Assembly: GCA_910890315.1 (NCBI GenBank)
Contig: CAJVGD010000010.1
Location: forward strand, 372,001-436,000
DNA: 64,000 nt
Source: Serendipita indica DSM 11827
Taxonomy: Eukaryota; Basidiomycota; Agaricomycetes; Sebacinales; Serendipitaceae
Reading direction: 5' to 3'
The notes beneath the pieces were generated by a model. It ran no database searches. It was not told the DNA's origin and worked only from the letters and a program-made list of their open reading frames with translations. Of this stretch, positions 28,709 through 59,127 are shown piece after piece (position 1 is the stretch's first letter; every line of letters begins with the position of its first letter). The translations under genes were made by a program, and so were the position numbers.

Positions 28709-30918
28709 ATGTCAACGTCGACTCTATCCATCGTGGCAGCGTCGCCTCTCGGATCTCCTGTGCCGTCCTTCCTCCCACATGCTGTCTCTGTCTCGCTTCC
28801 GACGTGGCAGGACAATGTCGATTACGAAGAAGGAGCCCCACGGGTTGTCGATGTGATGAAGACAGGCTACCCTCGCTTTTTCATCCATCGTTCCATCCAG
28901 AAGGTGCGTCAACCGCTTTCCCAGATACTCATTTTCAAGTTTTCACTGACATCACATATTGTGTTCCTTTCTTGATAGCTCTCGGCAATGTGTGAAGCAA
29001 AGTTTGGCCTGGACGAACGAGCAATGCTCTTCCCATGCGATAAATACGCTAACTCATGCCGTGACTTCATCATACGAAATGAACCCAAAGCCACTGTTCG
29101 TATCGTTCAGTTTTACATCTCTCCCCCTGAAGCCAGGGTCACATCTACAAGAGCCGGCGTATCGTCTCCCGTGGTCACTGGACAACGTACCACGTCCAAT
29201 GGAGTCAAGTCCGGTCCATCACCCACTAGCAATGCAGGGGCAACTGAACGACCAGTGCTATGTGGAGACCTCCACATCGTGCTCTTCAAACAGGAGCAAT
29301 GGGGACTAGCCAAAGCATTTTGGCAACACACTGGAACTGGAATATCCAGTCGCCTTGCGGAGCACTGTCTTCAGTTGCTCGAACAACAGACCATGTCCAA
29401 AGATGAGTTACTCGCGTCGGCCAAAGAAGCCTCGCTCCGCGGCAGGAACAGGCATTACTCTGCAAAGAGTCGCTCGTCTTTATCGAGTCCTGTCCTTAGT
29501 GATGCTGACCGCAAGAGAGAGGCGGTGCGTGAGGAGGAGACCAGCTATCTCGAGGAGAGATACGGGCGGAATCTCCCCGCGTTGGCGGTAAAGGAAGCCA
29601 AAAGAACATTGAGGGAGCGCATCGCCGGAGTAATTTCAGAGTGCAGGAACGGGCAGACATGCCAACCAGGTGAGTTTTTCAACGTCGTTGAGTCCCAATG
29701 GCTGATGTAGTGTAGGCATGGTCGGACCTAGCACGCGTCGAGTCGCAAATCTCTCAGCGGACGATGTCTTCTTGTTCCCTGGTGGAATGTGTGCGATATG
29801 GCACACACACCAGCTCCTCCTCAAAGCCTTGGGCGATCGAAAGAGTATCTGCTGGGGGTGTGTTCAATTTCTTAGGTATAAAATCTCATGAGCTGACAGT
29901 TTTCCTCCTTTAGGTTCCCTTATGTGGATACCCTCAAGATCCTCCAGAAATGGGGCCCCGGATGTTTCTTTTTCGGTCATGGTGATGAGTTCGAGGAACT
30001 TGAGGTACTCCTCAAGACTCAGCAGGAAGCTGGATCCCCGATTCTCGCGCTGTTCTGCGAATGTACCTCGAATCCTCTCCTGCGCACACCCGACCTCGCT
30101 CGCCTCCGATTGCTGGCGGATGAGTACAAGTTTGCGTTGGTGGTTGACGAGACTGTCGGAAACTTTGCGAATGTAGAGGTCTTGCCATATGCAGACGTGG
30201 TATGCAGTTCGCTCACCAAGGTATTCAGTGGAGAGACAAATGTGATGGGCGGAGGGTGAGTTTACTTCAACGCAGAAGAGTCCATGTTGATTTCTTTCAC
30301 AGGCTCATACTCAATCCGCAAGGACAGTTCTACCGAAGGCTCCGCCCGGTTCTCGAGTCGTTTTACGAGGACACATACTGGGGCGAGGACGCGCTCTTCC
30401 TGGAGCGCAACTCTCGCAACTTTAAGTCACGCGTATACAAGATCAATCAAAACGCCGAAGACGTCTGTGATTTGCTCTACGCTCATTCCCTCGACGGTGC
30501 GGCCTCGTCTGAAGGCAAATCGCTTACAGTCACCAAAATACCCGTCATTAAGAAACTCTACTATCCAAAATGGATTACTACCGATCTTTACAATAGTCTC
30601 AAGACACCCCAAGGCGGATTCGGAGGACTTTTTTCAGTCACATTTACATCTGAGGCTGCGGCACGCGCCTTTTTCGATGCACTGGGTTGTGAAAAGGGGC
30701 CCAGTCTTGGCACAAACTTCACCCTGGCCTGTCCATTCGTCATTCTGGCTCACTATACCGAGCTGGATTGGGCGAGAGGTTACGGTGTGGATCCTTATTT
30801 GGTCCGAGTTAGCGTTGGGCTGGAGAAGACGGAAGTGTTAATTGGGTGGATTGAGAATGCGCTCCGTGCCGCGGAGAGCGCCATTGTGGAGCAGGGAAAG
30901 TCGGCAAATCTGGCTTGA
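28709..30918 (+). CDS. Cystathionine gamma-synthase-like PLP enzyme, copy 2 (intact)
   Basis: Exons 28709-28903, 28979-29669, 29716-29857, 29914-30255 and 30303-30918 give 661 codons with proper GT-AG introns. The N-terminal fungal extension has [20 protein letters not shown] and [18 protein letters not shown]; the fold-type I part has [49 protein letters not shown] (Asp contacting the PLP ring nitrogen) and [17 protein letters not shown], where the Lys (about residue 445) should bind PLP. It closes with [14 protein letters not shown] and a C-terminal domain. Family knowledge: fungal enzymes of this kind join O-acetylhomoserine or O-succinylhomoserine and cysteine in the transsulfuration route to methionine. 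The exact substrate cannot be read from sequence. It is the intact member of a tandem pair. Confidence 0.85.
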
Positions 30919-41149: not shown

Positions 41150-43101
41150 CTACCAGCCTGCATCCTGGTCACGCTCTACAATAAAGTCCAAATCACGTGC
41201 GATGTCCACACGTGGAGTCTCCCAGAATGCCGTCCATATCGAATCGGGAGACAGCGTCGAGGGCGGAAGAGAAGAGTTCATCCCTTGAACAAAGCAGAGC
41301 GACGATGGATTTTGAGGTGGTTCGACTTTTGGGGAAGGGATGTCGAAAGAGAGTTCCGAGCATGGTGATGGAGCTGTGAGCTGAACGATTGGCGCACCCA
41401 TGTGCGGCAAGGGAGGTGGCTCAAACGACAAGGCAAACTCCTCAAAGTCAATGTCGTTCTCGACAACACTCTCTTCGTCACTCTCCTCGTCGTCTCCATC
41501 GTCACTCTCTTCACTCCGCTCGTACTGCCAACTGGGAGGAACGAATGGAGCATCTTTCTTTTGGTTGCTAGCTACCCATGGCGGAAGCTGTACGGCCATC
41601 TCGATCGGGGTTAAGGGACCAGTGGAGGATTCTGCAGTCGACGGTGAGGGGCATCGTCCGATTGCTGGCCGTTGAATCTCCCCATCCGAGTACGATAGGT
41701 CGATTGCGTTTCGACCGTCGTTGCGCGGATAATCGTCCGAGCGATGTCGAACAGTGACCACGCCTCGAGCCCAGGCACACGCCCGTTCTAGTTCGTGCCA
41801 CTCGCTCAAGCACGCTTTCCACATCGTTCGCTTGTCCGAGGCATCGTGCTGAGTTTGACTCTGGTCGTCCCAGGAGACTGCGCTGACCCATGTCGTCCGC
41901 AGCTGCTCTAGCTCGTCGGTGGATCCATAGGGCGACTCGTCCTCTTCCGTCTTCCATCCACCCTCAGACCATGTGGGCAGAGACTCGTTGGTAATCCAAG
42001 TGGGTGGCGCGAGTGCAAGCCACTCGGGAACAAAGCCGGAGAACTCCCAATCCACGATACCAGTCACTGCTCCCGTCTCCTCGTCGACGAGAATATTTTC
42101 TGGAGACAGATGAAGATGCGCCAGGACAAATCGATCATCCTCCTTGTCCTCGGCATCCAGGATCGTCTGCGCGAGGTCACCCAACGCTCGCAGTTGCTTG
42201 CGGTAGACGGCGCTTGTCGTGCTGGCAAACGATACATCGGTCGGGATCTCGTCCTCCATCCCACACTGTCTAAGTCGTACCATGTTCATGTTGAAGCACC
42301 GCGCTGCCGGCCTCTGGTGTTGGCGGAGGAAAGCCACCTCCGACTCGACAGCCCAGCGCATAAACGAACTGGCCGAGTCGTGCCCACCAGAACCCATTCG
42401 AGGCGACTGATATGGTCGCATATTGTTGGCTCCGGTTCGGCGAGGGAGCGAGAGCTGGACGCGCGAGACGCCTGACTTGCTGCCAGAGGCAGCGGCGTTG
42501 GCGAGCATTGAGCCAATCTCGTCTGCAACCATGAAACGTGAGAGTTTCCGAGTGAGGGTTCCCAAGTCTTCGATGGTGCGCTGCTTCTGCTTCATGCCGA
42601 AATCCGACCAGCATTCTGCCACTGGACATCCAGCGACTCGGGTCATCGCGACCCATCCCAATCCAAATTCCGTGCTCTCTGACGCATCGTATGCCAGTAT
42701 CTGTGGAACTCGGCGTCGCACCTGCTTGGGGGCAGATTCTAGACCGCCAGGGCGTCAGTGTCCACATCGACGGTTATCAGTACACATCACTCACCATGAA
42801 TAAGGGTGAGCGTCCCCACATATACACGGATCTTCTTTCTTTCTTCATCGATAGCGACGTCATTGTACACTGGTCGACTTGAGATTCTTACGATGACGGC
42901 TGATCTGCGTGCGCCTGAGATGGTGTCGCTGGCTGCCGTGGTCGATGGTGATGATGCAGATGAATGCTCTATCAGCTGGTATACGGATGCATATGCACCT
43001 CGGTCGACGATACGTGCAGAGACGAATCGACGATCCAATATTTTGCTCATCCGGCGTGCAAGCAGGACCGTGTCCACGCTCGAGTAGGATTTATGCTCCA
43101 T
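41150..43101 (-). CDS. Aminoglycoside-phosphotransferase (APH)-like protein, catalytic Asp replaced
   Basis: Exon 1 starts at 43101 (MEHKSYSSVDTVLLARRMSK) and contains a kinase-like N-lobe (FVSARIVDRGAYASVYQLIE, RSAVIVRISSRPVYN). A single intron (GTGAGT to TCTAG near 42787-42738) leads to the large exon ending at 41150. The C-lobe has the APH signature in the form FVLAHLHLSPENILVDEETG followed by GIVDWEFSGFVPEW. In ordinary APH enzymes the loop is HxDxxxxN; here it reads HLHLSPEN, so the catalytic Asp is His. The metal-binding DWE is kept. The final 180 residues are acidic and low-complexity (EESDDGDDEESDEESV). Fungal APH-like proteins are numerous and mostly uncharacterised, and this one may be a pseudoenzyme. 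Confidence 0.72.
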
Positions 43102-43350
43102 GATTTGATAGATGGTATCTACAGACTAGATCTAGATCTAGCTGCTTGTCTGGCGAGCGTAGGAGGGCTGTTGTCGACGAGTTTTTCGGTGAGAAATTGA
43201 CTGCGAGGGCTGGGACGATTGGAAGAGCGAGCTGGAGGCTGATAATCTCGAATTGAATGTTCTGAGAGTTGTTGATGGCGATAGTTTGCATAACAGTGGT
43301 GTTCCAGCGGTCGTGGGCAGGTTCAAGTTTGTCCCATAACAGCGTCTGAC

Positions 43351-43936
43351 TCAACAGCGCGCATATTTTCCGCGAAGGGCTGTGAGCCAGACGGGCCATA
43401 GGCGATGAGAATTCACATGAACATAGGAATATCCAATTATATTCGAGTTGTTACCAAGGAACACCGACGCTTGCTCAACTTCCAACTCCTGTTGGTATTG
43501 GGGAAATATCCGTTTGAAGACAGTTGCACCGTTCGACATATTCGACTCGCATGTACTGCACGTAAGTGAACTCCGGAAGCTACGCCTAAATAGGCACCCA
43601 GTCAAGGACACCCACAGGGTACCCGCTTTCGGGATCTACAAGGATGCATTGTGGTGTGATAACCTCATCCGTGAGACAGAAAGGATAGTTAGGACGAAGC
43701 CTCGTCGCTTTTAGCACTCGCAGACGACACGGTTTATGAGATCGACGAGCTATCTCCCAGGAAATAAACCACCGTAGCCAAACACAAGATATGGTTCTGT
43801 GTAAGTAAATATCTTCGGTGACGTATTGGAACGGATGGGCGCGTGGAGGAGAAAAGATCAAGACGAAATCGACTAGGTCTTCACTGAGAGTACCGCATAT
43901 AAGCGCAGACCCACAGGGAGAAACCTCTTTGTTCAA
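43351..43936 (-). pseudogene. Fragment of a phosphotransferase-like gene
   Basis: Two overlapping short frames. The upstream one contains FCLTDEVITPQCILVDPESG and YPVGVLDW, which resembles the catalytic and metal-binding strands of APH-like proteins, but the expected HxD is absent. The downstream frame continues as GATVFKRIFPQYQQELEVEQ. No start, no N-lobe and no clean exon chain could be found, so I read this as a decayed relative, next to the larger APH-like gene on the same strand. It could also be an unrelated small gene. Confidence 0.35.
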
Positions 43937-44136
43937 GTTGCGTCTGGCGTGCTGTTATGGATGGGCGAAAGTGCTGATTCGACCAATCCAGATTGTCAGA
44001 TATTTCGAAGAGCTCCGTCAGCCAATAAAAGAGCTCTTGGCTCAAGGACCAGTGGATACATTGAATAAACATACACCCAAGTGAAACGCATACTTTGACC
44101 CAATACGTCGAAGCAAGATTGAAACTCGACCACACA

Positions 44137-47050
44137 TCAAGAATAAGATAACCCTTCAATTCCTCCTTTAACCTCTTCCGGCGTTGAAGATTCATGATTC
44201 TTTGCGATGGCGTCTAGACACACCACGATATCCTCTATGCTAGGCCGCACCCAGGGATCGTAGTCCCAACAGGCATTGAGGAGATTCCAGAAAGGGGATT
44301 CGACACCAGCGGATACATTTGCCCCATCGCCTTGTGTCGCTGGTTTCTGTCCACAAAAAAGAGCCTCTTTTAAGTCGACGCGCTTAATAACGTTTCGGTA
44401 TGGCTCCACCTCCTCTACAAACTAGTTTAGGTTGTAGTCAGTGCGTGAGCAACTATATGTTAAGAGCCTACCTCCAGTGCCACGCACCCAAAAGCCCAAA
44501 TATCACTTTCCTTCGTCGCCTTTGCGCTCTCGTTGTCAAACACCTCTGGAGCCATATATATCTCTGTACCCATGTACGCAGAAGGTGTTGTCATCCCACG
44601 AGGCCCCCATCCGTCCTCTAAGCCTACAAGACCAAAATCAGCGAGAAGTGCATTGCACTGGTCGTCGATAAGAATGTTTTTCTAGTAGTTATCAGCCACT
44701 TCGGCGCCATCGACGACAGACGTACGGGCTTAAGATCGCCATGGATGATTTTGAGTCCGTGTAAATATTGCAATCCCGACGCCACTTGCCGCGTCTATAT
44801 GGGTAAGTATAAGCCTATCAGGACATAAAGCTTACTAGTCTTAAACGTTCTGCTAATGATACCGACTCCTGGGTTGTCAAGTAGGCTTCCGCGTGCCCGT
44901 GTTCACACCACTAACAAGAGCATTAGAAACACGACACGATCAAAACAGGCACTTGCCGGTGACACCATAGAACAAAAGTCGCCATGATTTGTTGTGAATC
45001 CAAGAAAGGGCAGAATATGAGGATGAGATAATGCTGCCCACACTTTAATCTCGCGATCAGTGCGCTGTTTAATATGAGCTTGAGCGTTCACGTAATAACG
45101 GTTTTGGGCTCACGCGTGTCAAAAGTTCCTCATGGCGATTTGGTTTTTTTTGGTTCTTACTCCTGCGAAACTTTAGGACCTTGATAGCAACCTGGAGCAG
45201 TTTCAGATGGCGTATAAAGACGGGAAATAACTAACCTTTTCTCCAAGATATTCAACAGGGTATACATTCGCATAGCTGCCGCTTCGTAGCAGTTTTGTTG
45301 TGGAATCCAAGCTCACTTCACCCGTAAGATCTAGAGGCGGTCGAAGTCGCATCAGTTGCTCCAATGGACCCTCTTGGATAGAGATCGAGATAGGCTCGAG
45401 TTGCTGCTCTTGAATCCGTGATTCGGTGTCTTTAGAACCTATGCGCTGGAAGAAGGGACCCCGGAGGTCTTCCATAGGCCCATCCCACTCCAATGAGATC
45501 AAGTGATCGTATATATTCTCGGGTGAATTCATGTTGGTATCTTCGGTGAGCATTCGGCACACAGTGGCCGCTCGAATGAAGCCCCCGTTTGCCTTCTCGA
45601 TTAGTCGTTGCCTTTTTTCCTTGGGTAGGACACCGTCTAACCTCTGATGCACATATAATGCAATATCGTCGAAGTTATCCTGGTATTTGATATCGTGGAG
45701 GCGGTTTTCCATCTTTGCCGCAATCGATAGCGACTGCAAAACTGCTTCAGTGACAGGGTCGGGTCGACCTGTAATGAAAATCCTGAGGTTTCGATTCTCT
45801 CGGGTAGCTGTAGCAAGCATCTCGAGAAGTACCTTCCGCTGCGATCCGGACTTGCATTCGTCGATAGCGTCAATGACTAGGACCACGCGCTTTTGCTGAT
45901 ATTGGAGTGGACCGATGACGAAGGCGCGAAACTGTTCATCAAATGAACTTCGCATGATAGCCGGATTGCCCTTGATAGCTTTGGCAATGTGAGGTGCGAG
46001 TTCAGGTATGTGATAGGCGAGTTCCCTGGCCATAGTTGAGCAAAACCTTTCCGTATTCGACGCTTCGCTGTCGCCCATCGAAAAGAAGAACTGCCCCCCG
46101 AGCATTTTCCTCGTTCTCCAAGATTCTGATGCGGACATTGCAACAGAGGATTTGCCAGAACCTGCTACATCGCATAGCCAAAATATTGGTTTCCCCGGCT
46201 CATCATCATCAGCCCATTGGGAGATAGTCTCAAGAACGATCTGACGCGTTCCTTGTATACAAGCAGTGTGTATCGAGGATGGGACAAATGTGACCGATGG
46301 GAGCTGAAGCAAGAGAGACTTTTCTAGTTAGGAGATGAGCAACGTCGTCATCACTCGAACTTCATTTTACCGTCAGCCTCTGTACTTCGTGCAACGACTT
46401 GGAGACGGTATGCCGCGAGTAGGTCCTATTCTGTGGATAAGATTATGGGTATATAATAAAAAGTTCCGTACAGTGAACACCCTGTGTCTCTCCTCGATCT
46501 CAAGATCCAGTTGACGAACTAGTTTCGCATCCTTCTTAGATATTCTTGATGCTTGAAAGACGTTCATTCTGCTACTGCTGGGCTTCTCCATCATCTTGGC
46601 GAGTGTATCGCGCATGTGTTTGAGATATCTGTATCGGTCAATTTACTGGGAGAAATTTGGATTGATCACATACCCTGCATGCTCGAATAGTGGTTGGATG
46701 AATGATTCATCTCTCCGCCTTTCCTCTGGGGAGTACTTTTCAAAAAGGTCGACTTCCTTCTTGGTAGCAGCCATATAGTCATCCAAACGCTGCCTTAGGT
46801 CGCCCCAAGCTTTTGTATTGTTGTCATCAGCCTGTCATATTTATCAGACAAAGGTATATCTATCTCGCCAACTCACTTGGCGGGCATCGAGGATCAGTTT
46901 CGTAGCTCGGACAGCTCCCTTTAAAGGAACTAGTATATCTGACACCTCGAACACATTTTGAAATAGATCAAGAGTCATGATGACTGTGTCCAACTGTTGA
47001 CCGTTGCTTGATGACCTTCTCCCGGAAGGCGATAATCCTCGTGGATTCAT
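44137..47050 (-). CDS. NLR-like protein: helical N-terminus, NACHT NTPase, C-terminal protein kinase
   Basis: About 11 exons and roughly 800 residues. Residues 1 to about 185 are helical (LDLFQNVFEVSDILVPLKGA, DDNNTKAWGDLRQRLDDYMA) and resemble four-helix-bundle N-termini (MLKL/HeLo-like) of fungal NLR-like proteins; that likeness is inference. The exon at about 46303-45234 holds the NACHT domain: IFWLCDVAGSGKSSVAMS (P-loop), KRVVLVIDAIDECKSG (Walker B), NLRIFITGRPDP, FIRAATVCRML. The same exon continues into the kinase glycine loop (STTKLLRSGSYANVYPVEYL). Later exons add VAIKVLKF (Lys), DREIKVWAALSHPHILPFLG, LKIIHGDLKPKNILIDD, ALLADFGLVG, EIYMAPEVF and ACWDYDPWVRPSIEDI, all residues of an active TKL-type kinase. 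No WD40, ankyrin or TPR repeats are seen. One intron uses a GC donor (GCAAGT at 44956). Confidence 0.85.
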
Positions 47051-47694
47051 AATTGTATCAGTAGATATATCCGAATCTCACAGCGAAAGTATGAAGATGG
47101 ATGGCTCCAAGATGCGCTCGGCGTCTGAGGTCTAGACCTCTGCATTCACGCACGCCAGCTACATGAGGCGGGTACTACCCCGCAAACTGCTTCTCATACT
47201 ATGCTTCTTAGCGTGCTTCTTATTCACGCATTTTACAAACGACAAGGTGGTGGAACATTAGAATTGAAAGACTCGAAGTAAGCCATTTCAACGCATGTCT
47301 GACGCCTTCACTGGCAAATCAGAGTGCTTTCGTAATGAAATGGAACTACGGCGCGTGATTATGACTGCCAAGGTGTCACCCAATCTCGTCACATTGACGC
47401 GCGCATAATTGGTGCCCGTTCAACGGCTCTACCGGGCCTCATTTCGATCCTCCGGAGAAATGCCCATATTCTCGCGTGGTGAAGAGTGTTGTGTCCGAAA
47501 TATTTAGCCCAGATGGTTGAGGCTATTTAGCCATTCGACCTCCATACGATCAGGTTATCGGAGGCTCGAGGTCATGAGGAGAACCTGCCCCGCGCTTTAC
47601 AATCTCTGACTAAGGATTCACACTCTATGAGCGGCGGTGAAAACCAATAAAGGGCCCGGGAGACGAATCCATTGTAAGCGCGAATCGCCCACCC
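47051..47694. promoter_or_regulatory. Upstream region of DJ-1 copy B with the two shared boxes
   Basis: On the plus strand, TTCAACGGCTCT (47419-47430), CTCCGGAG (47450-47457) and CCATATTCTCGCGTG (47464-47478) form box 2, and TGAGGCTATTTAGCCATTCG near 47518-47537 forms box 1. The order and orientation relative to the gene match copies A and C. Nothing else is recognised in this divergent region. Confidence 0.5.
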
Positions 47695-48524
47695 ATGCGC
47701 TCCTTCGTCCTGCTCCTTACAGCAAGTGCACTCACCCTGAGTGTGTTGGCCACTCCGCAATCACCTCATCCGCAGCGCCTCCCACTCCGCTGGGGGATTC
47801 TTGCGTATCCTACCTTTGTTGGACTGGATGCATTTGCGCCCATAGAAATACTAAACATCGTCAGGATGTTGACCCCCAACATGACGATAGCTATTATTGC
47901 CGAGACGATGGATCCTGTTCCTTCCCATGCCTTGACCGACATTGGTGTCCCTGGGACGTATCTACGCCCTACTCACACAATTTACGACAATATTCCTCTT
48001 GACGTGCTGCTCGTGCCTGGTGGTGGCCCTGAGAGTGCTGTACAGTTCAACAATACACGTCTCATCAACTATGTCAAGCGCACGTACCCTTCCCTTCAGC
48101 ATATCCTCTCCACGTGCACCGGTGCACAATTCTTGGCCAAGGCTGGCATTTTGGACGGTAAGAAGGCGACGACGTCGAAATTTAGCTGGAAGGATATAAT
48201 CAAGACCGGCCCAAGAGTAAAATGGGCATGTGTTTGCGTTTCGCCTGATTGTCGAGCTCATCCCTGTCTAGGTTCCTTGCGCTCGCTGGGTCAGGGACGG
48301 AAATATTTGGACCAGTTCTGGAGTCACTTCTGGTTTTGACTTGACCAATGCTTTTGTCGAACAAGGCATGCGCAATGTGACTCTTGCGAACCTTGCCACC
48401 AATATCATTGAGTACGAGACCCACGAGGATCCTTCTTGGGACCCTTTCTGCAAGGTTTGCGTCTCTTTTAATCTTTGCAAATCTGTCTCATCCTTGTCAG
48501 ATCTGGAATGTGACAGCCGCGTGA
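47695..48524 (+). CDS. Secreted DJ-1/PfpI-family protein, copy B
   Basis: Exons 47695-48225, 48272-48454 and 48501-48524 give 245 codons. Signal peptide MRSFVLLLTASALTLSVLA; the DJ-1/PfpI domain starts LRWGILAYPTFVGLDAFAPI. Nucleophile elbow STCTGAQFLAKAGILDGKKA with Cys. Compared with A and C it has PGGGPESA in place of PGGPGSRIA, one residue longer at the oxyanion turn, which could alter substrate use. The first intron starts with GC (GCATGT at 48226), as in copy A. It ends with IWNVTAA, like the -WN(V/A)T ends of its paralogues. Confidence 0.85.
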
Positions 48525-48591
48525 CACGAAATGGTTGACAGAGGTTATGTAATGTCTCTGTATCGCTATTTATGCCACAATCGTGCAAGTA

Positions 48592-49092
48592 TTATGATTT
48601 GATGACTTGATATCCTCTCCCAGCTTCCGTTAATGGTAACTGAGCCGCTCCAAATGCTTTCAAGGTCTCCTCGAGCTTGTCCGCGTCCGAACAGTCTACG
48701 ATCCGAGCGTTGTGTAGTTTATAAATTGCCTCTTTTGCCCATACACGACAGGAGAACATGGACTCTTTGGAGCCTTTTGGAATCGCCATGGGAATCCGCT
48801 CGAGGATCTCCCTCACATGAACGGTAGTTGTCTGACCATCCAACATGCCTTTCGAGTAGTTAGGAACCGACGATGTGAAAGAAACTCGGCTTACCCAGCT
48901 TATAGACTATGCAGCAGTTGATGGAATTGGTGATCGTTTCCTCCACTTCCTGAAACGCCCAAGGGCCGACCAAATTTGCTGCATGAAGCTTCAAAACCGA
49001 GTAGTTGTGATCCCAATGCAGAGCGCCCAATGAAACTTTTGATCGTGTCGCGCATAGAGAACAATGTAGATTGCGTTGGGTTCGACCTCCAT
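48592..49092 (-). pseudogene. Small uncharacterised basidiomycete-type gene with a frame break
   Basis: From the ATG at 49092 the protein reads MEVEPNAIYIVLYARHDQKF and HWALCIGITTTRF, then a TGA; two bases later the frame continues KLHAANLVGPWAFQEVEETI, an intron, MLDGQTTTVHVREILERIPM, FSCRVWAKEAIYKLHNARIV and a stop at 48592. I recognise the layout from small fungal proteins of unknown function whose late part has CRxWxKxAI followed by a conserved Cys; I cannot name the family with certainty. The shift near 48995 is not bridged by any intron of normal size. The gene is either newly broken or affected by a sequencing error. It is divergent from the coiled-coil gene by 94 bp. Confidence 0.5.
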
Positions 49093-49186
49093 AATAGACT
49101 AGTGGGTCGAAGGCAGCAAGTACCCTTTCGTGAGTCTGTATCAGGGTAAGACGACGGTCGTTTAGTCCGCTTCGCTAATAATTGGG

Positions 49187-51184
49187 ATGGGCGTCGTCGT
49201 TTTTGATAGCACCCCCAGCGAGAAAGTAGCAATTTATGCACAAGCTAAAGCTTTCTGTGACGGTGAATTTTTTTTGGTCAAGCGCGAGTCGTCCAAGGAC
49301 AATTGCCACATTGTTCCTGACCTTGTCATGGGCATTCTGGATCCATTCCAACGAATAGACGCTCTGATTGCGCAATACCAACCAGAGACCTCGAACATAC
49401 CCAATCACCTCACAAGCGCTGCCTTTGTCGACGCCGTCGCGAATGCGCCCAGCACCGACTTTATCCGCGCTGCCAATCCCTCGCAGGCAGCGGTCTATAA
49501 TGTAGACGTCAACCAAACGGCTCTCAATCGACCCAATGAACTCGAAAAGATGGAGATCAAGCGAAAAACGATTGGCGTGGCGACGCCACTGAAGAAAGGC
49601 GAAGGACGGAAACCACGTCGCTCGCGTGTTGCGGCTATATTTGACGACGAGAATGACCCAGAGGTTCCCTTGCGCGCAGCGCTAAAGCTCATCGATCTAT
49701 AGTATGTTCTCATCCCTCAATTGCCCGGATCTGATGGCATATCAGCCCTAATGCTGTCTCTTCAGACGTGAAAAATCAGATTCTGGAATGGATAGAAGAC
49801 GATAAAGCTCAGGCAGAGCGAATACGCTCACTGGCAAAGCCAAAGGTGGTCACCCATCCCTGAAACTTTGCGTTATACTGATTATTCTCCAGCAACATGC
49901 AGCTCTTGATAATGACGAAGCGGGTCGTCTCTCTCAAATTGAAGATGAAATACGACAACTCGAGGACCAGAATGTCAAACTTCGTCAAAAGGTACTCTTC
50001 AACAGTGTCTATATAGCCCACTCTTACATATGAAAGTTAAACGCTAGGATGCAGGCCGAAGCTGCGCGGCATTTTGATGCAGCCGACGACTCGATGATGA
50101 GCGAGTCTTCGCCCATAGTCCAGCGGACTATTGGCAGATCACGGCCTCTACGTCATCGCGACAAGTCTCCGGATGGAGACGAAACTGTGGATTTTAACAG
50201 GCTCAATCTAGTCGACAACTCGTTACTGATGGAGACGGACACGCCGGACATATCTCAACTGATGGCACAAACTCCAATGAAGCTTGATTCGTCTGGAAAC
50301 TGGGAGAAAAGGAAGGCCGCATCTTCATCTTCGTACGTCGACTTCTCAGGAGCGCGTACTCCACCGCGGACAGAAGAGGAGTATTCCAATGAGACTCCGC
50401 GCGCATATGGATATGACGACGACTATGGTGAAGAGGCTTATGACGAATCAGCAGAAGTCGAACCCGAGGATGCAGACGAAACTGTGCTACTGCAGGAGCC
50501 AGAGGATGACAACCATGTGCTGGGAGATAGTCCAATTAACGTGGAAGAGCCACTAACCAATGAATCGAGCGATGAAAAACGGAATGTGTCACTACAAAGT
50601 CCAGAACCTGTACCCCAAGCGACCATTCAACGTCCGACCACGGAGGACGATCTTGAGTCCGCTCAAGATGCATCAAAGATGCGTAGTTTCACCGTACGTA
50701 GACCCGAATCGCTACCATGATCTAACCGAAAGTACAGACGAAAATCTGGTCCATTGCAGGCGATGTCCTTGTTCCTGGCAATCAGTACGAGGCGAGCAAA
50801 GGTGATGGAACAGAACCGACACCGACCTTTAGAGAGACTAAGTAAGTGGTGCCTTCGAACAATCTCTAGTGAATAATCCACTTCCTTAGGCAGATGCTGC
50901 AGTCTATCTCAAAGTCACGGCCATCCTCGGTAACACCAGATGACGTTATTCGCATTCTAACAGCCTCATTGTTGTACTATCTCACCGGGAGAACAACAGA
51001 CGTTGTGGGCGACTCAGGAGATGCCTTTTCTTCCGGGACCAGTGAGGCAAAGGATCTACTTAACAAGGTGATCGATGAAAATGGATGGGATCGGACACTC
51101 TGTACCAAGGTCATCTTTATGTGGACGGGAAAACGGCTCCTCAAGAGTGAAGGTGGTAGAAAGATTCGCTGTATAGTGGATTAG
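49187..51184 (+). CDS. Coiled-coil protein of unknown function
   Basis: Starts MGVVVFDSTPSEKVAIYAQA at 49187; the exon runs to about 49700, then joins YPNAVSSDVKNQILEWIEDD, QHAALDNDEAGRLSQIEDEI and LNARMQAEAARHFDAADDSM with consistent introns, through a long acidic exon to about 50693, and ends TKIWSIAGDVLVPGNQYEAS, QMLQSISKSRPSSVTPDDVI to the stop at 51184. A coiled coil is likely near SQIEDEIRQLEDQNVKLRQK. A basic patch (KKGEGRKPRRSRVAA) precedes it. The middle is acidic and disordered. The last 90 residues are globular and helical (PDDVIRILTASLLYYLTGRT). I do not recognise a family; a nuclear structural protein is a guess from composition only. Confidence 0.55.
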
Positions 51185-51533: not shown

Positions 51534-53053
51534 ATGAGCTCTACTTTGCTTGAACAGGGCCCTGACCGTGGAGACGACACCAGTCGAGAGAAGGATGTCA
51601 TAAAGGACGCAGTTAAGAGGAAATATAAGATCAATCTCGCCTCACTGTTCTGGTGCTTCTTCATGTATGGCATCAACGATGGTACACTGGGGCCTCTCAT
51701 ACCCGTCTACCAACGATATTACAAGGCAGGCCGAGTTACTCCATTTTCCGCTGTTCTGAACCGCATCTAGATTAGCTTTATCATTGTTTCGCTCATCTTC
51801 ATCTGCAATAGCGTCGTAAGTTCTACATTATCTATTCAGAAAAGACTGATTGTTCGGAGGGTTTCGTCCTGTGTTCTGTGCTCAATGTCTTTCTCTCTGG
51901 ACGCATCAACTTCTCCAAGGTGTGACAATTTCGCGTACATTATATATTAATTAACATCAAATGAAGTTGCTTGTGGTCTCTTCCATCCTACAAATCGCCT
52001 CATACGCCATCCTCTGCGCTGCGCCACCATTCCCGCTCGTATGGTACGTATCTCTTTCTTCCTGGTTACCTTTAGCCCACTAGGCCATAGCGTTGCGTAC
52101 TTTTTCGTCGGAGCCGGTCTTGCCCTTCTCAACGCACATGGAAATGGATTCATGTCGATGCTGAAGAACTCGTCCCAAATGGGGATGGCACATGCTATCT
52201 ACGGTAAGCCTTGATTATTGTATAGGGCGTGGATTATAATATACTATAGGTAGTGGCGCCTTGGTAGGTCCTCTAATCGCCACCCAATTCGCCCAATTTT
52301 CGGGACGAAAGTGGGCGTATCACTACTTTGTGCTACTAGGCGGTCTACTGGTCAGCTTTACATTGCTTGTGTTCGTCTTCCGCGGGAAAGAGTATGATGG
52401 TGAGGTGAAAGTCTCGTCACTTTCGTTGTCACTCAGGCTTGTTAGTGATATTGGGTGAGATGGGCTTAGTCCCGGCGACGTCCAGACAAGATACAGAAGC
52501 CAACTCTGTAACTAGCAGAGGACGTGAAGTTGCTGAGGAGAAATCTAGCGGCTTCGCTAAGATCATGAAGCAAGTAACCATGCACGTTATGGCCCTCTTC
52601 GTCTTTGTTTACGTCGGGGTCGAAGTCACGATTGGAGGTATGATTTAGCATCAGCGTGACGTTTTGACTAAGAGCCAGGCTGGATCGTGACGTTTATCAT
52701 CCGCGAGCGAGGAGGTGGGCCGTCCTCGGGATATGTGAGCTCTGGTTTCTTTGGAGGTGAGTGTGAGCGCGACTTTGCTATCCATGCTTATGGGTATAGG
52801 TCTCGCATTGGGCCGTGTCTTGCTATTATGGGTGAACCGAAAGATTGGGGAGCGTAACGTCGTGTTCTTGTACACTGTCATTGGCATCGGGTACGCCACC
52901 TTTACGCCACAAACTAGTCTCTTATTTCTTGCAGACTCGAATTCGTCGTCTGGTTTGTTCCCTCTCTAATTGGCGACGCGATTGCCGTCTCCTTTGTGGG
53001 ACTGGTCCTGGGGCCTATGTACCCTATTGTAATGTCTCAAGCGGGACATATTA
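51534..53053 (+). pseudogene. MFS transporter, 5' part (split by a transposon)
   Basis: Starts MSSTLLEQGPDRGDDTSREK. Exons give successive membrane helices: INLASLFWCFFMYGINDGTL, GPLIPVYQRYYK, ISFIIVSLIFICNSV, GFVLCSVLNVFLSGRINFSK, LLVVSSILQIASYAILCAAP, VAYFFVGAGLALLNAHGNGF, SGALVGPLIATQFAQFSG, YFVLLGGLLVSFTLLVFVFR, then a cytoplasmic loop, VMALFVFVYVGVEVTIGG, GLALGRVLLLWVNRKIGERN, WFVPSLIGDAIAVSFVGLVL and PMYPIVMSQAGHI. The family is the fungal MFS group near yeast Bsc6, of unknown substrate. The coding frame stops shortly after the insertion at 53054 and the last two helices lie beyond the element at 57.9 kb. The intron at 51726-51770 has a GC donor. Confidence 0.8.
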
Positions 53054-53131
53054 TGGCTGTTTCCGTTCAGGTTGGCGCGTTTTGAATTTTACATAGCCAC
53101 ATATGTTGAGCAGCCCCTATCTCCTCCCCAC
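53054..53131 (+). repeat. Left terminal inverted repeat
   Basis: The first 26 bp match the reverse complement of 57824-57849 without a mismatch. The next 50 or so match imperfectly; CTATGTTGAG near 57800 (reverse strand) corresponds to ATATGTTGAG here. Confidence 0.85.
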
Positions 53132-53372
53132 GTTGTCGTAGTGCAGCGATACTTAATACTGATATTTGTAAGATTTGAAGCTTTCTGTTTGGTGTACTTT
53201 AGCCGCAAAAATCAAATGTGGTAGAATGGCCCACTTTTGGACGTCCTCTATTGCTTGCCCACATTGCATTGACGTGAGAATCTTACTTGAAGAAAACAAC
53301 TGACAGTGTTATTAATCAGTCCATTAGCATAACTCACGTCGCCGTCATGTCATTCATATCTTGGACCGGACC

Positions 53373-54544
53373 ATGACGCGCGGACGGCCCATCTCAAATG
53401 ACCTTCGCCATGCGGTGGTCAAGATGCATCTTGAAAGGCTTGATACGAAGACTATTTCACGCTATCTGGGGATTAGAAGGCGCTCAGTCCAGCGTATCAT
53501 TGCAACAGTGCACTCTGATCAGAAAATCATCTCTAACGAGTCTCAACGTCGTGGCTCGCCTCGGAAAATGACAGATGATTGTATTCAGGTCTGTCTTCGC
53601 CCTAATACCCTGTCAGCAGCTCATAAAATCCAGTTTATTTTAGGACTTGTTCAGCAACGGCCGGACATGTACTTAGATGAAATACGAGCAGAATTGCTTG
53701 CTGGGATGGGTGTTTTGGTCTCTCTCAGTACTATTCATCGATCCTTACGCAAGGCTGGGCTTACAATGAAAGAGGCATGTCCAAGTCCTTGCCTTCGTAT
53801 TGGGACTTATGATTATAGGTTACCAAGGCAGCCCGAGAGCAAGATATAGACCGTCAAGCTGAATATTTCAATAGAATCTCACGCTAAAAACCCCATGAAC
53901 GAGTCTATGTTGATGAATCTCGCTTTGATCAGCGTACAAGCCAACGTACCCGTGCTTGGGCTTTCCGGGGACAGCGAGCACTTCAGAAGGTATTCTTCTT
54001 GAGAAGAAAAAGGTGAGCATTGTGCAATCTCTACTTCGCAGTCTAATTGTTCAGTTACTCTGTTCTACCAGCACTTTCCCTTTCGGGTGTTCTCCATGTC
54101 AAAGTCGTGGAGGATGCATTCAATATGGAAAGATTTAATCGGTTTATTGCAGAATTGCTCGAGAAGATGAACAAATATGATCCAGAGCACCATCCTCCAA
54201 ACTCTGTGATCATTCTCAACAATTGCCGGATTCACAAAGACCCAGAAATGATCCAGATGGTTCAGCAACGGTATGTATAGAGCATATAAAATAAAATTGT
54301 TCACTGATTCTGGTACAGCGGTATGCAAATTGAGTTCCTTCCACCATACTCGCCCGACCTGAATCCAATCGAATTATGCTTTGCAGGGATGAAAGCATGG
54401 ATTCGGCGACATATGGAGGAAGCTAAGGAATCATGGAATGACAATAATAACCCAAATCAGGCTCGCTGGCTACTGTATGAGATGACATTCTACCCAACTC
54501 CTTGGATGGCATATGCATGGTTTGCACGAGCAGGGATTGTGTAG
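53373..54544 (+). pseudogene. Tc1/mariner (DDE_3) transposase, inactivated
   Basis: MTRGRPISNDLRHAVVKMHL and TISRYLGIRRRSVQRIIATV form an N-terminal helix-turn-helix, followed by SLSTIHRSLRKAGLTMKE. The catalytic core has VYVDESRF (first Asp), VIILNNCRIHK (the second Asp position is Asn) and LPPYSPDLNPIE (Glu or Asp position). An in-frame TAA at 53885 follows FNRISR. Introns are needed near 53775-53818 (a GC donor), near 54013 and near 54275. The changed second catalytic residue plus the stop make this copy unlikely to be active by itself. It could still be mobilised in trans, since the ends are intact. Confidence 0.82.
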
Positions 54545-54572: not shown

Positions 54573-57500
54573 CTATATTGATACTACGTGTGTCTTGGAT
54601 CCAATTTTCTGATCAGTATCCTCACGGGCCCAGGCCTCAAGTCGTGCAGCAGTCCCCTTGGCAATGCCGCCAATACCAACAAGACCCTCTTTACCCAAGA
54701 GACAGATCTCTAATGTACTTTGTATATCTTCTGCTAAGAGCGGCTGCAAAAGTGCCTGATAGTTGGTGTTATCACCCTCAATACGCCCTCTGAGTGATGC
54801 CAGCCACTCGTTTATGGGAATATGCCTCTTCCCAGAGCCAATAGGTCTCCTGCGATTACTCTCAGATGGACCTAACTCGCCAGAAATAGGCACAGACTGA
54901 GAGCGGGCAAGGAATCGTTGAGGTGTTGGTGGACCAAGTGCTGTAAATGTGCGAGCAAAACGAGGTGTTTCGAATGAATTAGTGGCTGATGGAACAGGTT
55001 GAGATAGCTCAGCCTTTTTTGCAAGCATTTGGGAATAGCGGCGGGCAATTTGTCTGGCAAGGAGAGTATCAGGAGAGCGAACTGTAGCATTATTTGCAAG
55101 CTATAGAATTAAATATCAATTAAGGAGTAATACTCAATCAGTCAATACATACCACTTCATCAAGCCACATCTCAAACTCGGAATCAGTGATCTGGATGTG
55201 AAGATTGGCCTTGAGGTTTATTCCATAGGATGTTAAAGCTGCAGTATCACCTCCACAAGGGACCCAGCAGTATTTGCCACCATGCTGGTTGCATTGACGA
55301 GCCTGGGCAAGTTCCTTTGAGGCCGGCAAACGCGGCGCATTGATTATTTTACTCATATTCTCTATGTTCTTTTTGCGATCATGACTAGTACTCCCAGCCT
55401 AATTGTCATATTAGTTGTGAACGAGCTCAATATAGTACCAATTACACACCTTGAACCCTGCCTTGCTGCCGCTTTTTTTTTTTTTTTTTGTGTTAAGTAT
55501 TATTGTGCAGTGGCACCGCCAATATAGCACATTGTCTAACTGGAGCCCGCTTACTGGGTTACCCTCGGTTTCATTGGCGCGTGCATCTCCTTGTAGGCAG
55601 GCAGTTGTCGCTCTCCTCGCCGAGATCTCCCTCTGGGTGTGGCTCTGCTACGCTACTTTTGCTTGCTTTCGATCGCCTTGACTGTCTGTGAAGTTGGTTT
55701 GGTTTCGATACGCGTTGTCTCTCTGGTGAGTTGGTTACTCTCTTTCCCTTCCGTTTGTATCCTCCCGTCCCATCTTCAACCTCCCTCCTGATAAACTTCA
55801 ACGTCTCCTTGATTCCCTCCTTTGTCCCTAGTATCTCCGCTGGTTCTCTCGTCTTCTCACGCAATGCTCCTTCCCATTCGGCTCGCGCTGCATTGTACGC
55901 TGGGCAGATGTGGAGGAGATGAGTTATGTTTTCTGCATTTCCCTCTCCACAGTGTGGGCACCACGGTGCATCCGCTCTGTTGATGCGGTTCAGATGCTTG
56001 TTCAGTCCGATATGTCCTGTACGTAGCTGAATAAGTGCCGCTGCTTCTGCTCTCGTTAGCTCGTCTGTGATTTGGAGATATTTGTTGGATGGCATTGTCT
56101 CGTCGATGGGCCTGGTCCTGTCGTACCGTGCTGAAGATTTCCACTTGTCGTGTGCTGACTTCCTTGCTGCAAGTTTGAGTTCCTGTCTGAGTGCCGAGAT
56201 ATTCTGCGGGAGGGTGTCCTTCGTCCATGGTGGGAGTGTTGCTGCTGTGGATGATCCATCTGTGATGGCCTTCTTGGCCTCCTCGTCCGCTGCTTCGTTA
56301 CCCTCGATCCCTTCATGACCTGGGACCCACGTGAGAGTGATCTGAGTCGATCGATTGATCCTCGTCTCGTCATCGCTCGCCTCTACGAGTTCTTGTCTAC
56401 GCTTTTGATCGTTGTGCAGTTCGTCTATTGCTCTGTGGATCTTGTGGATGATGTGTTGGCCGGCTTTGGCACTGACGTTCTCCATTCCTTGTATTGCTGC
56501 CTGGGTGTTGCTGCCGCTTGCTTCTCTGATCCGGACGGACCACTCATTTGGTGTCCCATTTTTTCGATTTAGCTGGTACTGTCGATATTTGCGAGCCCAG
56601 GTAATGATATGCTCCCAATCTCTCTGCGAGTTGAAGTCCCTGAATGCTGACTGGTTGCGATCCTTCTCAATTTTGTACTGTAGTGGGCGTAAATCACGAG
56701 CTTCAATGCCTATGGCAAGTCCAAGTGCTCGTTTGACAGCAACATAGTCATCCGTGCTCTCGACTGCGACCAACACCTCGCGGCGTTGAAAAACAAACCA
56801 GATAGTGACTTCAAAAGCTAAATCTCATCTTGTTAGTGTAGCTAACACTCTTAAATCAAACGCACCAGTGCTATTTGCCAGGTTTAGCTGGTCAGTTGTG
56901 TTCTTTTTCAGCTTATGGCGACCTGTTCTCTGTTGAAAAACGAACTCTTCTATCCCACTCGACGTGTCTGATAAGGAAGGTGACTGGAACCATGCATGGT
57001 CCATAGCTGTCTCCCCTTCTTCGCTTGCAGTCTCATACAGGTCAGGATGGTTATCAGAGTTTTCATCCTTTTCATCTATGTCATCTTCTAGTGATTCTAC
57101 GCTTGTCTTGTACACCTTGGGCTGCACATGGATCCCACCTTTCGAGGCAGGTATGCCCTTGGAAGTCAGACAATCACTATGTTCTTGCTCTCTGACCGAT
57201 GGGAGCTGATGATTCCTTTGGAGAATGACTGCAGGTACAGTGCAAACTTCATGGTGAGCATTCTCCTGTATCTTCATGACGTCTGACTCACCAGGCACTT
57301 CTCTTATAGGTTTATTGAAACTCTTCAAAGGATCAATATTGATCTTTTGACGAGATGACCGAGTTTAACGAGGTGTCTGCGTGATCTGAAGCACCTGCGC
57401 CAACAGGCCTCGCTTGGAGAGTACAGTAGCAGAAGATGCGACCATATTTGATGCTTTTACGGTGTTTCGAGCCTTCTTTGGGGCATTGAGGGCAGACTGA

Positions 57501-57581: not shown

Positions 57582-57771
57582 TCCACATAAGCATACAGTT
57601 ATTTACTTCCAATATCATATACTAAACACTACTGCCAAACACAAGGGAATACTCTAGGACGTGACCAAATGTGACAATCATCCCACGTTTGAAATGCAGG
57701 CCTAAAGTGCTCACAAAAGGTAGACCCAGATCAAGTGATTCTAATGATATAATATTATTTGCCCTCTGATA

Positions 57772-57849
57772 ATGTGGGGAAGAGCTACAGGCCACTCAAC
57801 ATAGGTGGCAGTGTAAATTGACTCGCGCCAACCTGAACGGAAACAGCCA
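57772..57849 (-). repeat. Right terminal inverted repeat
   Basis: Outer 26 bp identical (inverted) to the left end; the inner part matches imperfectly. Flanked by TA at 57850-57851. Confidence 0.85.
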
Positions 57850-58146
57850 TATCCCACAGCACGTACGCCAGCAACTTGGATCAATGTACCTGCGCTAACT
57901 TTCGCTCAGCTGCTGACTGGGTCTATTGGATGGATAAGTGGTTTCGGTGGCACAGGAGGTGCCGTCGTTCCCTTTATGACTGGTGCATTGGCCAACCGGT
58001 TCGGAATTCGCTCATTGCAACCACTGTAAGCTTGTTTGCTCCAGACGCACGGGGTCAAGCTGACAGCCGGCAGTATTGTTGCCATGATGGCTGTAATGGG
58101 AGGCTTATGGTTCATAGTCCCAGCCCCTTCGAGACGCCAAGTATGA
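57850..58146 (+). pseudogene. MFS transporter, 3' part
   Basis: After the TA at 57850 the gene resumes: IPQH, a 46-bp intron, LLTGSIGWISGFGGTGGAVV, PFMTGALANRFGIRSLQPL, an intron, and SIVAMMAVMGGLWFIVPAP, ending with a TGA at 58146. These are the last two helices of the transporter whose first part lies at 51.5-53.05 kb. A clean rejoining across the element (CAT ATT ATC CCA) is visible, so the host gene was intact before insertion. Confidence 0.82.
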
Positions 58147-58249: not shown

Positions 58250-59127
58250 TCATATAGTGGCGTTCCAGACCTTAGGGGCGATAAGTACATGCTGTATGCA
58301 CATTTGTCAAAACGAACCTTGCAGAACGGATCCCAAGAAGGATCTTTGTGAATCTCGATCTCCAGAATGTTCGCCGCACGATCCGCGAGGGTTTCATTTC
58401 TGAAGATCTTCTTAATGAACGCATGAGTCAAGTCGATGCCCGCAGCGACACCAGAGCTTGTCCAGATATTGCCGTCGGTCACCCAACGAGCGCATGGTTG
58501 CTTGAATAGATATCAGACTCGTCGAGAAAAAATAATCTAAGGACGGACCCATTTCACGTTCGGCCCACTCCTGACCATCTCAGCCCAGCTAAACTTGTTC
58601 GTGGTCGCTCGCTTCCCGTCAAGGATACCAGCTTTGGCGAGCACCTGAGCGCCAGTGCAGACCGAGACGATATACTGCAGCTTGGGGTACACATTCTTGA
58701 CATAGTTGATGATGTTGGTGTTATTGTAGGCGATACGACTACCTGGGCCACCGGGGATGAGGAGGACGTCTAGTGTCACGTTGTCGTAAATGGTATGCGT
58801 AGGCTGCATCAACGTCGCTGGACCCCCGAGGTCGTTGACGACATGCGCCGGGACTGGGTCCATTGTCTCTGCGATGACGGCAATAGTCATGTTTGGAGTG
58901 AGAAACTTGACAATGTTGAGCATCTCAATGGGCCCGTATGCGTCGAGGCCGACGTATTTGGGAAACGCGAGGACGCCCCATCGGAGTGGGATGGGTTTTG
59001 GTGGCGGAGGTGGCGGAGGTGGAGGTCTCCCTCCTGCCACGACTACGGCGGTGCAGGTGGCTAGTAAAAGGAGGAGGGTGGACAGTAGCTGCATAGGAGG
59101 GGTCAGAGCCTGGGACTGATTCGCCAT
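58250..59127 (-). CDS. Secreted DJ-1/PfpI-family protein, copy C
   Basis: Exons 59127-58549, 58500-58318 and 58270-58250 give 260 codons. Signal peptide around MQLLSTLLLLLATCTAVVVA, a Pro-rich linker (PPPPPPPPKP), then LRWGVLAFPKYVGLDAYGPI. Nucleophile elbow SVCTGAQVLAKAGILDGKRA with Cys and the turn PGGPGSRIAYNN. The first intron has a normal GT donor (GTCCGT at 58548), at the exact place where A and B use GC. It is closer to copy A than to copy B in most motifs. Its 3' end faces the MFS gene, about 100 bp away. Confidence 0.85.

What the first reader, a model, noticed from the sequence alone, without database searches (positions are those of the whole stretch)
44137..47050. NACHT NTPase fused to an apparently active protein kinase, with a helical N-terminus and no repeat domain
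Fungal NLR-like proteins usually end in WD40, ankyrin or TPR repeats that sense the trigger. Here the exon with the NACHT core (P-loop AGSGKSS, Walker B VVLVIDAIDEC) reads straight into the kinase glycine loop, so the kinase takes the place of the repeat domain. The kinase keeps the β3 Lys, the αC Glu region, HGDLKPKN, DFG and APE. The N-terminus looks like a four-helix bundle; in animals such a bundle is joined directly to a kinase fold in MLKL, which kills cells. An NTPase placed between bundle and kinase would be a new arrangement of the same parts, possibly a programmed-death or non-self-recognition switch. Architecture is seen; the death role is inference.
Basis: partly seen in the sequence, partly recalled or inferred. 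Interest (0 to 1): 0.88.

Follow-up and report, generated by a model that had tools for sequence, protein, structure and literature searches.

The report
Mushroom NACHT protein ending in kinase
A mushroom gene joins a helical front part and the core of an immune-type NTPase to a protein kinase where most such fungal receptors carry sensing repeats; it looks like an unusual variant of a known receptor class, and its role in cell death is a guess.

Summary
One intact minus-strand gene (47050..44137, 11 exons, 10 short introns, 807 aa) encodes an N-terminus predicted helical, a NACHT/NPHP3_N-type NTPase core and a complete tyrosine-kinase-like (TKL) kinase. The kinase begins inside the NACHT exon, so two neighbouring genes have not been wrongly merged. 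Pfam found no WD40, ankyrin or TPR repeat and no winged-helix domain.

Corrections: the kinase keeps its Lys, Glu, catalytic Asp, Asn, DFG and APE, but one of three loop glycines. The NTPase P-loop has Asp for the first Gly. The MLKL/HeLo bundle is not shown: no Pfam hit, no credible PDB match, nothing significant from Foldseek on a poor model.

Pairs of these parts are already described in fungi: MLKL-like bundles on NACHT proteins, C-terminal kinases on otherwise complete NACHT receptors, HeLo-like bundles fused to kinases. The three together, without repeats and with a TKL kinase, did not appear in my literature listings, but no fungal proteome could be searched. I judge it a new variant of a known kind. 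Best mechanism: NACHT-driven clustering switches on the kinase (inferred, about 0.4). A kinase serving as bait is the main rival.

The parts
44137..47050 (-). whole coding gene, 11 exons: 47050-46877, 46831-46674, 46628-46472, 46425-46371, 46323-45236, 45191-45161, 45078-44957, 44910-44836, 44794-44726, 44681-44472, 44421-44137; 807 aa plus stop
   Evidence: splice model with open frame throughout, introns 41-82 bp (alternatives counted)
46371..47050 (-). exons 1-4, residues 1-181: N-terminus predicted helical, of unproven family
   Evidence: no Pfam hit; PDB best E 0.58; all-helical single-sequence model of pLDDT 52 made from exons 1-3 read through two introns
45764..46246 (-). NPHP3_N/NACHT NTPase core, residues 208-368
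   Evidence: Pfam NPHP3_N E 2.8e-23, NACHT E 9.8e-10
46145..46165 (-). Walker A AGSGKSS, residues 235-241; Asp in place of the first Gly of GxxxxGK
45854..45886 (-). Walker B VVLVIDAIDEC, residues 328-338
45236..46323 (-). exon 5: NACHT core, segment with GGFIRAATV (428-436), about 90 residues without a Pfam match, then the kinase glycine loop, all in one exon
44224..45289 (-). TKL-type protein kinase domain, residues 527-779, spread over exons 5-11
   Evidence: Pkinase E 4.2e-42, PK_Tyr_Ser-Thr E 3.5e-37; top PDB sequences TYK2, B-Raf, RIPK1, CTR1
45260..45286 (-). glycine loop RSGSYANVY, residues 528-536, one of three glycines kept
   Evidence: alignment to B-Raf
45180..45182 (-). beta-3 lysine K548 (VAIK)
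44726..44743 (-). catalytic loop HGDLKP (638-643), continued as KNI at 44681-44673; HGD in place of HRD
44631..44639 (-). DFG, residues 658-660
44911..44956 (-). GC-AG intron 7
   Evidence: keeps the hinge VSPWCEHG aligned with B-Raf VTQWCEGS; a GT donor 9 nt upstream would also keep the frame but drop three residues

Best explanation
It is an NLR-like (STAND-type) signalling protein, most likely of an Agaricomycete mushroom, in which the C-terminal repeat region, and apparently the winged-helix domain, have been replaced by a complete TKL-type kinase. Most likely mechanism: the N-terminal helical domain and the NACHT core bring several copies together when a trigger or partner is present, and crowding lets the attached kinase phosphorylate its neighbours or a substrate (induced proximity, in the manner of RIP-type kinases). 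The kinase is then the output of the receptor. Shown here: one gene, the domain order, the intact core catalytic residues, absence of detectable repeats. Inferred: oligomerisation, kinase activity, the trigger, and any link to non-self recognition or death.
For: Single open gene model with the NACHT core and the kinase glycine loop in one exon. NACHT/NPHP3_N and Pkinase hits above Pfam cut-offs. The kinase keeps K548, E564, D640, N645, DFG and APE and aligns over residues 27-288 of a 308-residue query with B-Raf, so catalysis has apparently been preserved. No repeat family and no winged-helix family was found, so no other known domain lies downstream of the NACHT core. TKL kinases are unusually numerous in Laccaria (PMC2838846, passages), and the related FslK kinases are nearly confined to Agaricomycetes (PMC3937382, part of section 4), giving a ready donor.
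Against: First P-loop Gly is Asp and two of three glycine-loop glycines are gone, so either nucleotide site could be weak. Without a winged-helix domain the usual STAND off-switch is missing. No relatives, transcripts, activity or partner known. A catalytically intact kinase can also sit in a receptor as bait. In the one fungal family with C-terminal kinases that I found described (Sordariales) the authors favour bait.
Confidence: 0.4

Rival explanations
1. Integrated decoy: the kinase domain copies a host kinase that a virus, bacterium or rival strain attacks, and its modification switches on the NACHT and the helical N-terminus. The kinase is the sensor, standing where repeats normally sense.
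For: C-terminal position. For nine Sordariales NACHT receptors with a C-terminal kinase close to CHK2/PRD-4 the authors propose exactly this (PMC12258605, passages).
Against: Here the kinase is TKL-type: no CHK2 is among the 60 best of 2686 PDB sequences matched. The Sordariales receptors keep a complete tripartite architecture besides the kinase. Catalytic residues are kept, which a decoy does not need.
Confidence: 0.25
2. A kinase with a scaffold: the NACHT core no longer switches (Asp in the P-loop, no winged helix) and serves only as a dimerising or localising module for an ordinary signalling kinase unrelated to immunity.
For: Strict GxxxxGK[ST] not matched; no winged-helix family found.
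Against: Walker B and the GKSS part of Walker A are intact. Variant P-loops are recorded among fungal NLRs (PMC4986451, passages).
Confidence: 0.15
3. Single-chain necroptosis-like machine: the N-terminus is a true MLKL/HeLo-type membrane-attacking bundle, the NACHT clusters it, and the attached RIP-like kinase releases it by phosphorylation.
For: Predicted all-helical with a helix order like that given for basidiomycete MLKL-likes (hG, h1, h2, h3, short hM, h4; against PMC9815663 section 12). RIPK1 is among the top PDB matches of the kinase.
Against: Model of pLDDT 52 containing 30 intron-derived residues, some inside the third long helix; no significant Foldseek match and no MLKL/HeLo protein in the 50 of 247 rows shown; no Pfam match. 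RIPK1 does not stand out from B-Raf, TYK2 or CTR1.
Confidence: 0.12
4. Recent chance fusion or gene on its way to decay, without a selected function.
For: P-loop and glycine-loop deviations; a transposase-like and an RNase H-like ORF lie 6-10 kb away.
Against: 11 exons with no stop or frameshift and all principal catalytic residues in place.
Confidence: 0.05
5. Annotation artefact: two neighbouring genes joined.
For: No transcripts were available.
Against: NACHT core and glycine loop share one exon without any stop; each of the ten introns has an in-frame solution.
Confidence: 0.03

Closest known systems
Fungal NACHT NLRs with HeLo-like, Goodbye-like or basidiomycete MLKL-like (BaMLKL) N-termini (PMC9815663; PMC4986451)
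   Same: N-terminus predicted helical, followed by a NACHT core
   Different: Those have WD40, ankyrin or TPR repeats or unannotated C-termini; here a TKL kinase. The N-terminal family match is not shown for this protein
Sordariales NACHT NLRs with a C-terminal PKinase, putative integrated decoys (PMC12258605)
   Same: Kinase C-terminal to a NACHT core
   Different: Those carry CHK2/PRD-4-like kinases on complete tripartite receptors; here TKL-type and no repeats found
MLKL and fungal HELL-kinase/pseudokinase proteins (PMC12881547)
   Same: Helical N-terminus (predicted) and C-terminal kinase fold in one chain
   Different: An NTPase core lies between, the kinase keeps its catalytic residues, and the bundle is not shown to be of the MLKL fold
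TKL expansion of Laccaria and the FslK kinases of Agaricomycetes (PMC2838846; PMC3937382)
   Same: TKL/TK-like kinase; CW(X)6RP part of the motif shared by TKs and TKLs
   Different: Only 16 of 241 FslK members have any additional domain according to that paper; membership of this kinase in FslK was not tested
Plant NLRs with integrated kinase domains (mentioned in PMC12258605; details recalled)
   Same: NTPase receptor with a kinase module
   Different: NB-ARC and LRR proteins of plants; presumably independent origin (recalled)

Membership tests
Fungal NLR (tripartite STAND receptor) | NACHT or NB-ARC nucleotide-binding core | tested here: met
   NPHP3_N E 2.8e-23 and NACHT E 9.8e-10, both above curated cut-offs; strict P-loop pattern fails at its first Gly
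Fungal NLR (tripartite STAND receptor) | winged-helix domain after the core | tested here: not met
   residues 257-520 gave five families, all P-loop NTPase, at E up to 10 (HMMER's filters drop most matches above about 0.1); about 90 residues lie between GGFIRAATV and the kinase match. Absence of a profile hit is not proof
Fungal NLR (tripartite STAND receptor) | C-terminal WD40, ankyrin, TPR or HEAT repeats | tested here: not met
   none among the 12 families listed at E up to 1; two ORFs just downstream (43589-43954, 43094-43450) gave no Pfam hit at E up to 0.01
Fungal NLR (tripartite STAND receptor) | known N-terminal effector domain | tested here: inconclusive
   no Pfam hit; many fungal NLR N-termini are unannotated by Pfam (PMC9815663, PMC4986451, passages)
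MLKL_NTD / HeLo / HeLo-like bundle | sequence-profile match | tested here: not met
   no Pfam family for residues 1-184 at E up to 1 or 1-205 at E up to 10. The CDD MLKL_NTD model was not available, and PMC9815663 reports BaMLKL sequences just below Pfam thresholds
MLKL_NTD / HeLo / HeLo-like bundle | four-helix bundle fold | tested here: inconclusive
   all-helical single-sequence model, pLDDT 52, pTM 0.45, with intron residues; Foldseek 0 of 247 matches at E up to 0.001
MLKL | bundle joined directly to a catalytically dead kinase fold | tested here: not met
   NACHT core in between; K, D and DFG present
TKL group kinase | best matches among TKL/TK kinases and CW(X)6RP motif | tested here: met
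   TYK2, B-Raf, RIPK1, CTR1 lead 2686 PDB sequences, 60 shown; CWDYDPWVRPSI at 764. No tree was made
FslK fungal kinase clade | position in the FslK clade of a kinase tree | not tested
   I had no FslK sequences to compare with
Active protein kinase | catalytic Lys, Glu, Asp, Asn, DFG, APE and glycine loop | tested here: inconclusive
   all but the glycine loop (one of three Gly) present; HGD instead of HRD. Activity itself needs a bench assay
Sordariales CHK2-type kinase decoy NLR | C-terminal kinase close to CHK2/PRD-4 | tested here: inconclusive
   no CHK2 among the 60 best of 2686 PDB sequences, which speaks against it; no direct comparison with CHK2 or PRD-4 was made
Sordariales CHK2-type kinase decoy NLR | otherwise complete tripartite receptor | tested here: not met
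   no repeat family found

The most novel reading that the evidence does not exclude
A one-protein necrosome: a membrane-attacking MLKL-type bundle, a NACHT clustering core and a RIP-like active kinase in a single chain, so that clustering, phosphorylation and release of the killer domain all happen inside one homo-oligomer without a separate sensor repeat domain.
Probability: 0.12. Interest if true: 0.85.

Novelty: new variant of a known kind. Interest (0 to 1): 0.42.

Why it matters
Fungal NLRs are thought to sense with C-terminal repeats. A repeat-less member with a kept kinase asks whether a kinase can be the output or the bait of a fungal NACHT protein, and whether the parts of animal necroptosis (bundle, kinase, oligomeriser) have been recombined in mushrooms. 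One survey that I saw in passages (PMC12258605) identified receptors by an NB domain plus canonical C-terminal repeats, so proteins of this kind could be undercounted in surveys of that design; that last step is inference.

Tried and rejected
Whole-genome search: not possible, no genome is held for this window. Relatives in viral contigs with the NACHT exon as query: none. Relatives in bacterial and archaeal genomes with the whole protein: one of four pattern hits was confirmed, a 33% match over residues 596-684 of the kinase in a Solirubrobacteraceae MAG (L001); not a useful relative, not used. Paralogues in the window: none; beyond the gene's own exons only weak kinase-loop matches at 7218-7595 (E 0.011) and 42020-42124 (E 0.46). 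PDB match of the N-terminus: one hit, a Mg-transporting ATPase at E 0.58, taken as chance. PDB match of the NACHT part: 0 hits at E up to 10. Structure of the NACHT exon: single-sequence AlphaFold2, pLDDT 35, not usable, no fold search done with it. Foldseek on it gave nothing significant: best E 0.2 with TM-score 0.27, and the 50 of 247 rows shown are assorted, mostly helical proteins (axonemal, PI3K regulatory subunit, BAR, alpha-pore-forming and others) at E 0.2-2.5, taken as generic. A window-averaged helix-propensity and amphipathicity scan of the N-terminus gave no clear domain picture. Bacterial-type promoter scan of the upstream region: 2 sites against 0.8 expected (sd 1.0), irrelevant for a fungus. 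Tandem repeats at 43000-50000: none. Considered and rejected: two genes wrongly merged (glycine loop in the NACHT exon); pseudogene (no stop or frameshift).

Literature: ten searches. The lists were complete, and capped (25 of 74 listed; 15 of 112; 12 of 13; 12 of 102). None of the listed titles and abstract starts, and none of the passages that I opened in seven papers, describes a NACHT protein with a C-terminal TKL kinase in an Agaricomycete.

Full report
WHAT IS THERE. The finding's coordinates frame one gene on the minus strand. I listed six-frame ORFs of 42500-49000 and read the minus strand of 43500-47300 in three frames, then built a splice model: ATG at 47050, stop at 44137, 11 exons, 10 introns of 45, 45, 46, 47, 44, 82, 46, 41, 44 and 50 bp, 807 residues. 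Nine introns are GT-AG; intron 7 (44911-44956) is GC-AG, chosen because it keeps the hinge VSPWCEHG in line with B-Raf VTQWCEGS. A GT donor 9 bases upstream would also keep the frame at the cost of three residues. Retaining any one of the ten introns alone meets a stop within 3 to 33 codons. An in-frame stop lies ten codons upstream of the ATG. In-frame splice alternatives exist at every intron (2 to 12 combinations each within 36 bases, the chosen one included), so exact boundaries are provisional; they alter the ends of exons and not the domain order.

ONE GENE, NOT TWO. Exon 5 (45236-46323) encodes residues 182-544 without a stop and holds Walker A (235-241), Walker B (328-338), the stretch GGFIRAATV (428-436) and the kinase glycine loop (528-536); the beta-3 lysine follows in exon 6. 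The open frame around it is the sixth longest of 1411 stop-to-stop frames of 30 aa or more in the window. The join of NTPase and kinase is therefore in the DNA itself and does not depend on a predicted splice.

DOMAINS. Pfam gives NPHP3_N 208-368 (E 2.8e-23), NACHT 235-376 (E 9.8e-10), Pkinase 527-779 (E 4.2e-42) and PK_Tyr_Ser-Thr 524-781 (E 3.5e-37). Of the other eight of 12 families listed at E up to 1, all below their curated cut-offs, seven are P-loop or kinase-like names and one is TCAD9, matched at the catalytic loop; none is a repeat. Residues 257-520 gave five families, all P-loop NTPases, and no winged-helix or repeat family at E up to 10; HMMER's filters drop most matches above about 0.1, so the effective limit is lower. 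The N-terminus gave no Pfam family (1-184, 1-205) and only a chance-level PDB hit, E 0.58. The NACHT part had no PDB match at E up to 10. The kinase matched 2686 distinct PDB sequences at E up to 0.001; the 60 shown are led by TYK2, B-Raf, a MAP-kinase-kinase-like protein, RIPK1, CTR1 and Raf, mostly TK and TKL kinases. Its motif CWDYDPWVRPSI fits the CW(X)6RPXF pattern that PMC3937382 finds shared by TKs and TKLs (part of section 4 read), with Ile for the final Phe.

RESIDUES FOR AND AGAINST ACTIVITY. Kept: VAIK (K548), REIKVW (E564), HGDLKPKN (D640, N645), DFG (658-660), APE (687-689). Not kept: two of three glycines in the glycine loop (RSGSYANVY) and the Arg of HRD. In the NTPase the GKSS and Walker B are kept, but the strict pattern GxxxxGK[ST] finds nothing, since Asp stands at the first Gly. 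Fungal NLRs with variant P-loops are on record (PMC4986451, passages). 'Apparently active' is fair for the kinase and less sure for the NTPase.

THE N-TERMINAL BUNDLE. A read-through of exons 1-3, which contains two 15-residue intron inserts (about 59-73 and 127-141), folds as all helices at pLDDT 52 and pTM 0.45: 16-34, 37-55, 61-77 (mostly intron-derived), 79-105, 108-113, 115-124, 133-155 (its first part intron-derived), 158-167, 172-192 in model numbering. Leaving the intron-derived parts aside, this resembles the order that PMC9815663 gives for basidiomycete MLKL-likes: an extra helix ahead of the bundle and a short helix between the third and fourth (section 12 read). It is weak: Foldseek found 247 matches at E up to 10, none at 0.001, and none of the 50 rows shown is MLKL or a HeLo protein. 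The most hydrophobic 19-mer of the N-terminus is residues 23-41, mean Kyte-Doolittle 1.35, below the 1.6 that I recall as the usual membrane-span cut-off. So the MLKL/HeLo identity is neither shown nor excluded. That such N-termini are frequent on basidiomycete NLRs raises the prior; this comes from the paper, not from a test of this protein.

NEIGHBOURHOOD. Thirty ORFs of the window, picked by hand mainly for length, were scanned with Pfam, ten each. Of the 30, 17 had a hit at E up to 0.01 and 13 had one above its curated cut-off. Hits include an APH-like phosphotransferase (41153-42754), three DJ-1/PfpI copies (5294, 47641, 58540), a Tc1-like transposase piece (53328; all seven families below cut-off), an RNase H piece (55574), WD40 (61349; 63367 below cut-off), DUF6535 (60739, below cut-off) and two Cys/Met PLP enzymes (26892, 30148). 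No second NACHT-kinase gene was found in the window. Short introns, the DUF6535 match and the kinase type point to an Agaricomycete; this rests on recall, since no taxonomy was given and no genome is held.

WHAT IS KNOWN. PKinase is listed among N-terminal domain classes of fungal NLRs (PMC4986451, passages). In Sordariales 12 NLRs have a PKinase, nine of them C-terminal on NACHT receptors that otherwise keep a complete canonical tripartite architecture, the kinase resembling CHK2/PRD-4 and proposed as an integrated decoy (PMC12258605, passages). A review of 2025 mentions HELL domains integral to proteins with kinase or pseudokinase domains (PMC12881547, passages and section 18). [quoted passage not shown] TKL kinases are unusually numerous in Laccaria bicolor (PMC2838846, passages). 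Of 241 FslK kinases 6 are from chytrids and the rest from Agaricomycetes, and only 16 of 241 have any extra domain (PMC3937382). Ten literature searches, four of them with capped lists, showed no NACHT protein with a C-terminal TKL kinase in a mushroom.

HOW IT MOST LIKELY WORKS. The N-terminus and NACHT core cluster the protein; the kinase, held at high local concentration, trans-phosphorylates itself or a partner. I put this at 0.4. The decoy model, in which the kinase is the sensor and the N-terminus the output, stands at 0.25. A scaffolded ordinary kinase has 0.15. The single-chain necroptosis-like machine, the bold reading, has 0.12. All of them rest on inference beyond the domain order. 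The finding is real and worth a proteome search, but it is a recombination of parts already known to combine in pairs, so I lower the interest from 0.88 to 0.42.

Noticed in passing
5294-5923 (-), 47641-48336 (+), 58540-59127 (-): Three DJ-1/PfpI-family copies, 66-84% identical in protein over the main aligned parts; each ORF includes a hydrophobic stretch that by eye looks like a signal peptide. One of them starts divergently, about 0.6 kb from the kinase gene.
   Followed up: partly
6133-6208 and 47404-47479 (inverted): A 76-bp stretch, 80% identical, lies a similar distance upstream of two of the DJ-1/PfpI copies; perhaps a conserved promoter element.
   Followed up: no
26339-27509 and 29728-30900: Direct duplication, 75% identical over about 1.2 kb, covering two Cys/Met-metabolism PLP-enzyme ORFs.
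   Followed up: no
41153-42754 (-) and 43589-43954 (-): An APH-like phosphotransferase ORF downstream of the kinase gene, and between them a shorter ORF with an ending that by eye looks APH-like (ILVDPESG...GVLDW) but gave no Pfam hit; possibly a fragment of a related gene.
   Followed up: partly
6939-7727 (-): A partial protein kinase ORF with HLDLKL at its catalytic loop (Pkinase E 2.7e-14); only weakly similar to the kinase of the finding (phmmer E 0.016).
   Followed up: no
53052-53145 and 57760-57851 (inverted); 53328-53846 (+); 55574-56824 (-): Signs of mobile elements: an inverted 94-bp pair, a Tc1-like helix-turn-helix transposase piece (below Pfam cut-offs) and an RNase H piece.
   Followed up: no
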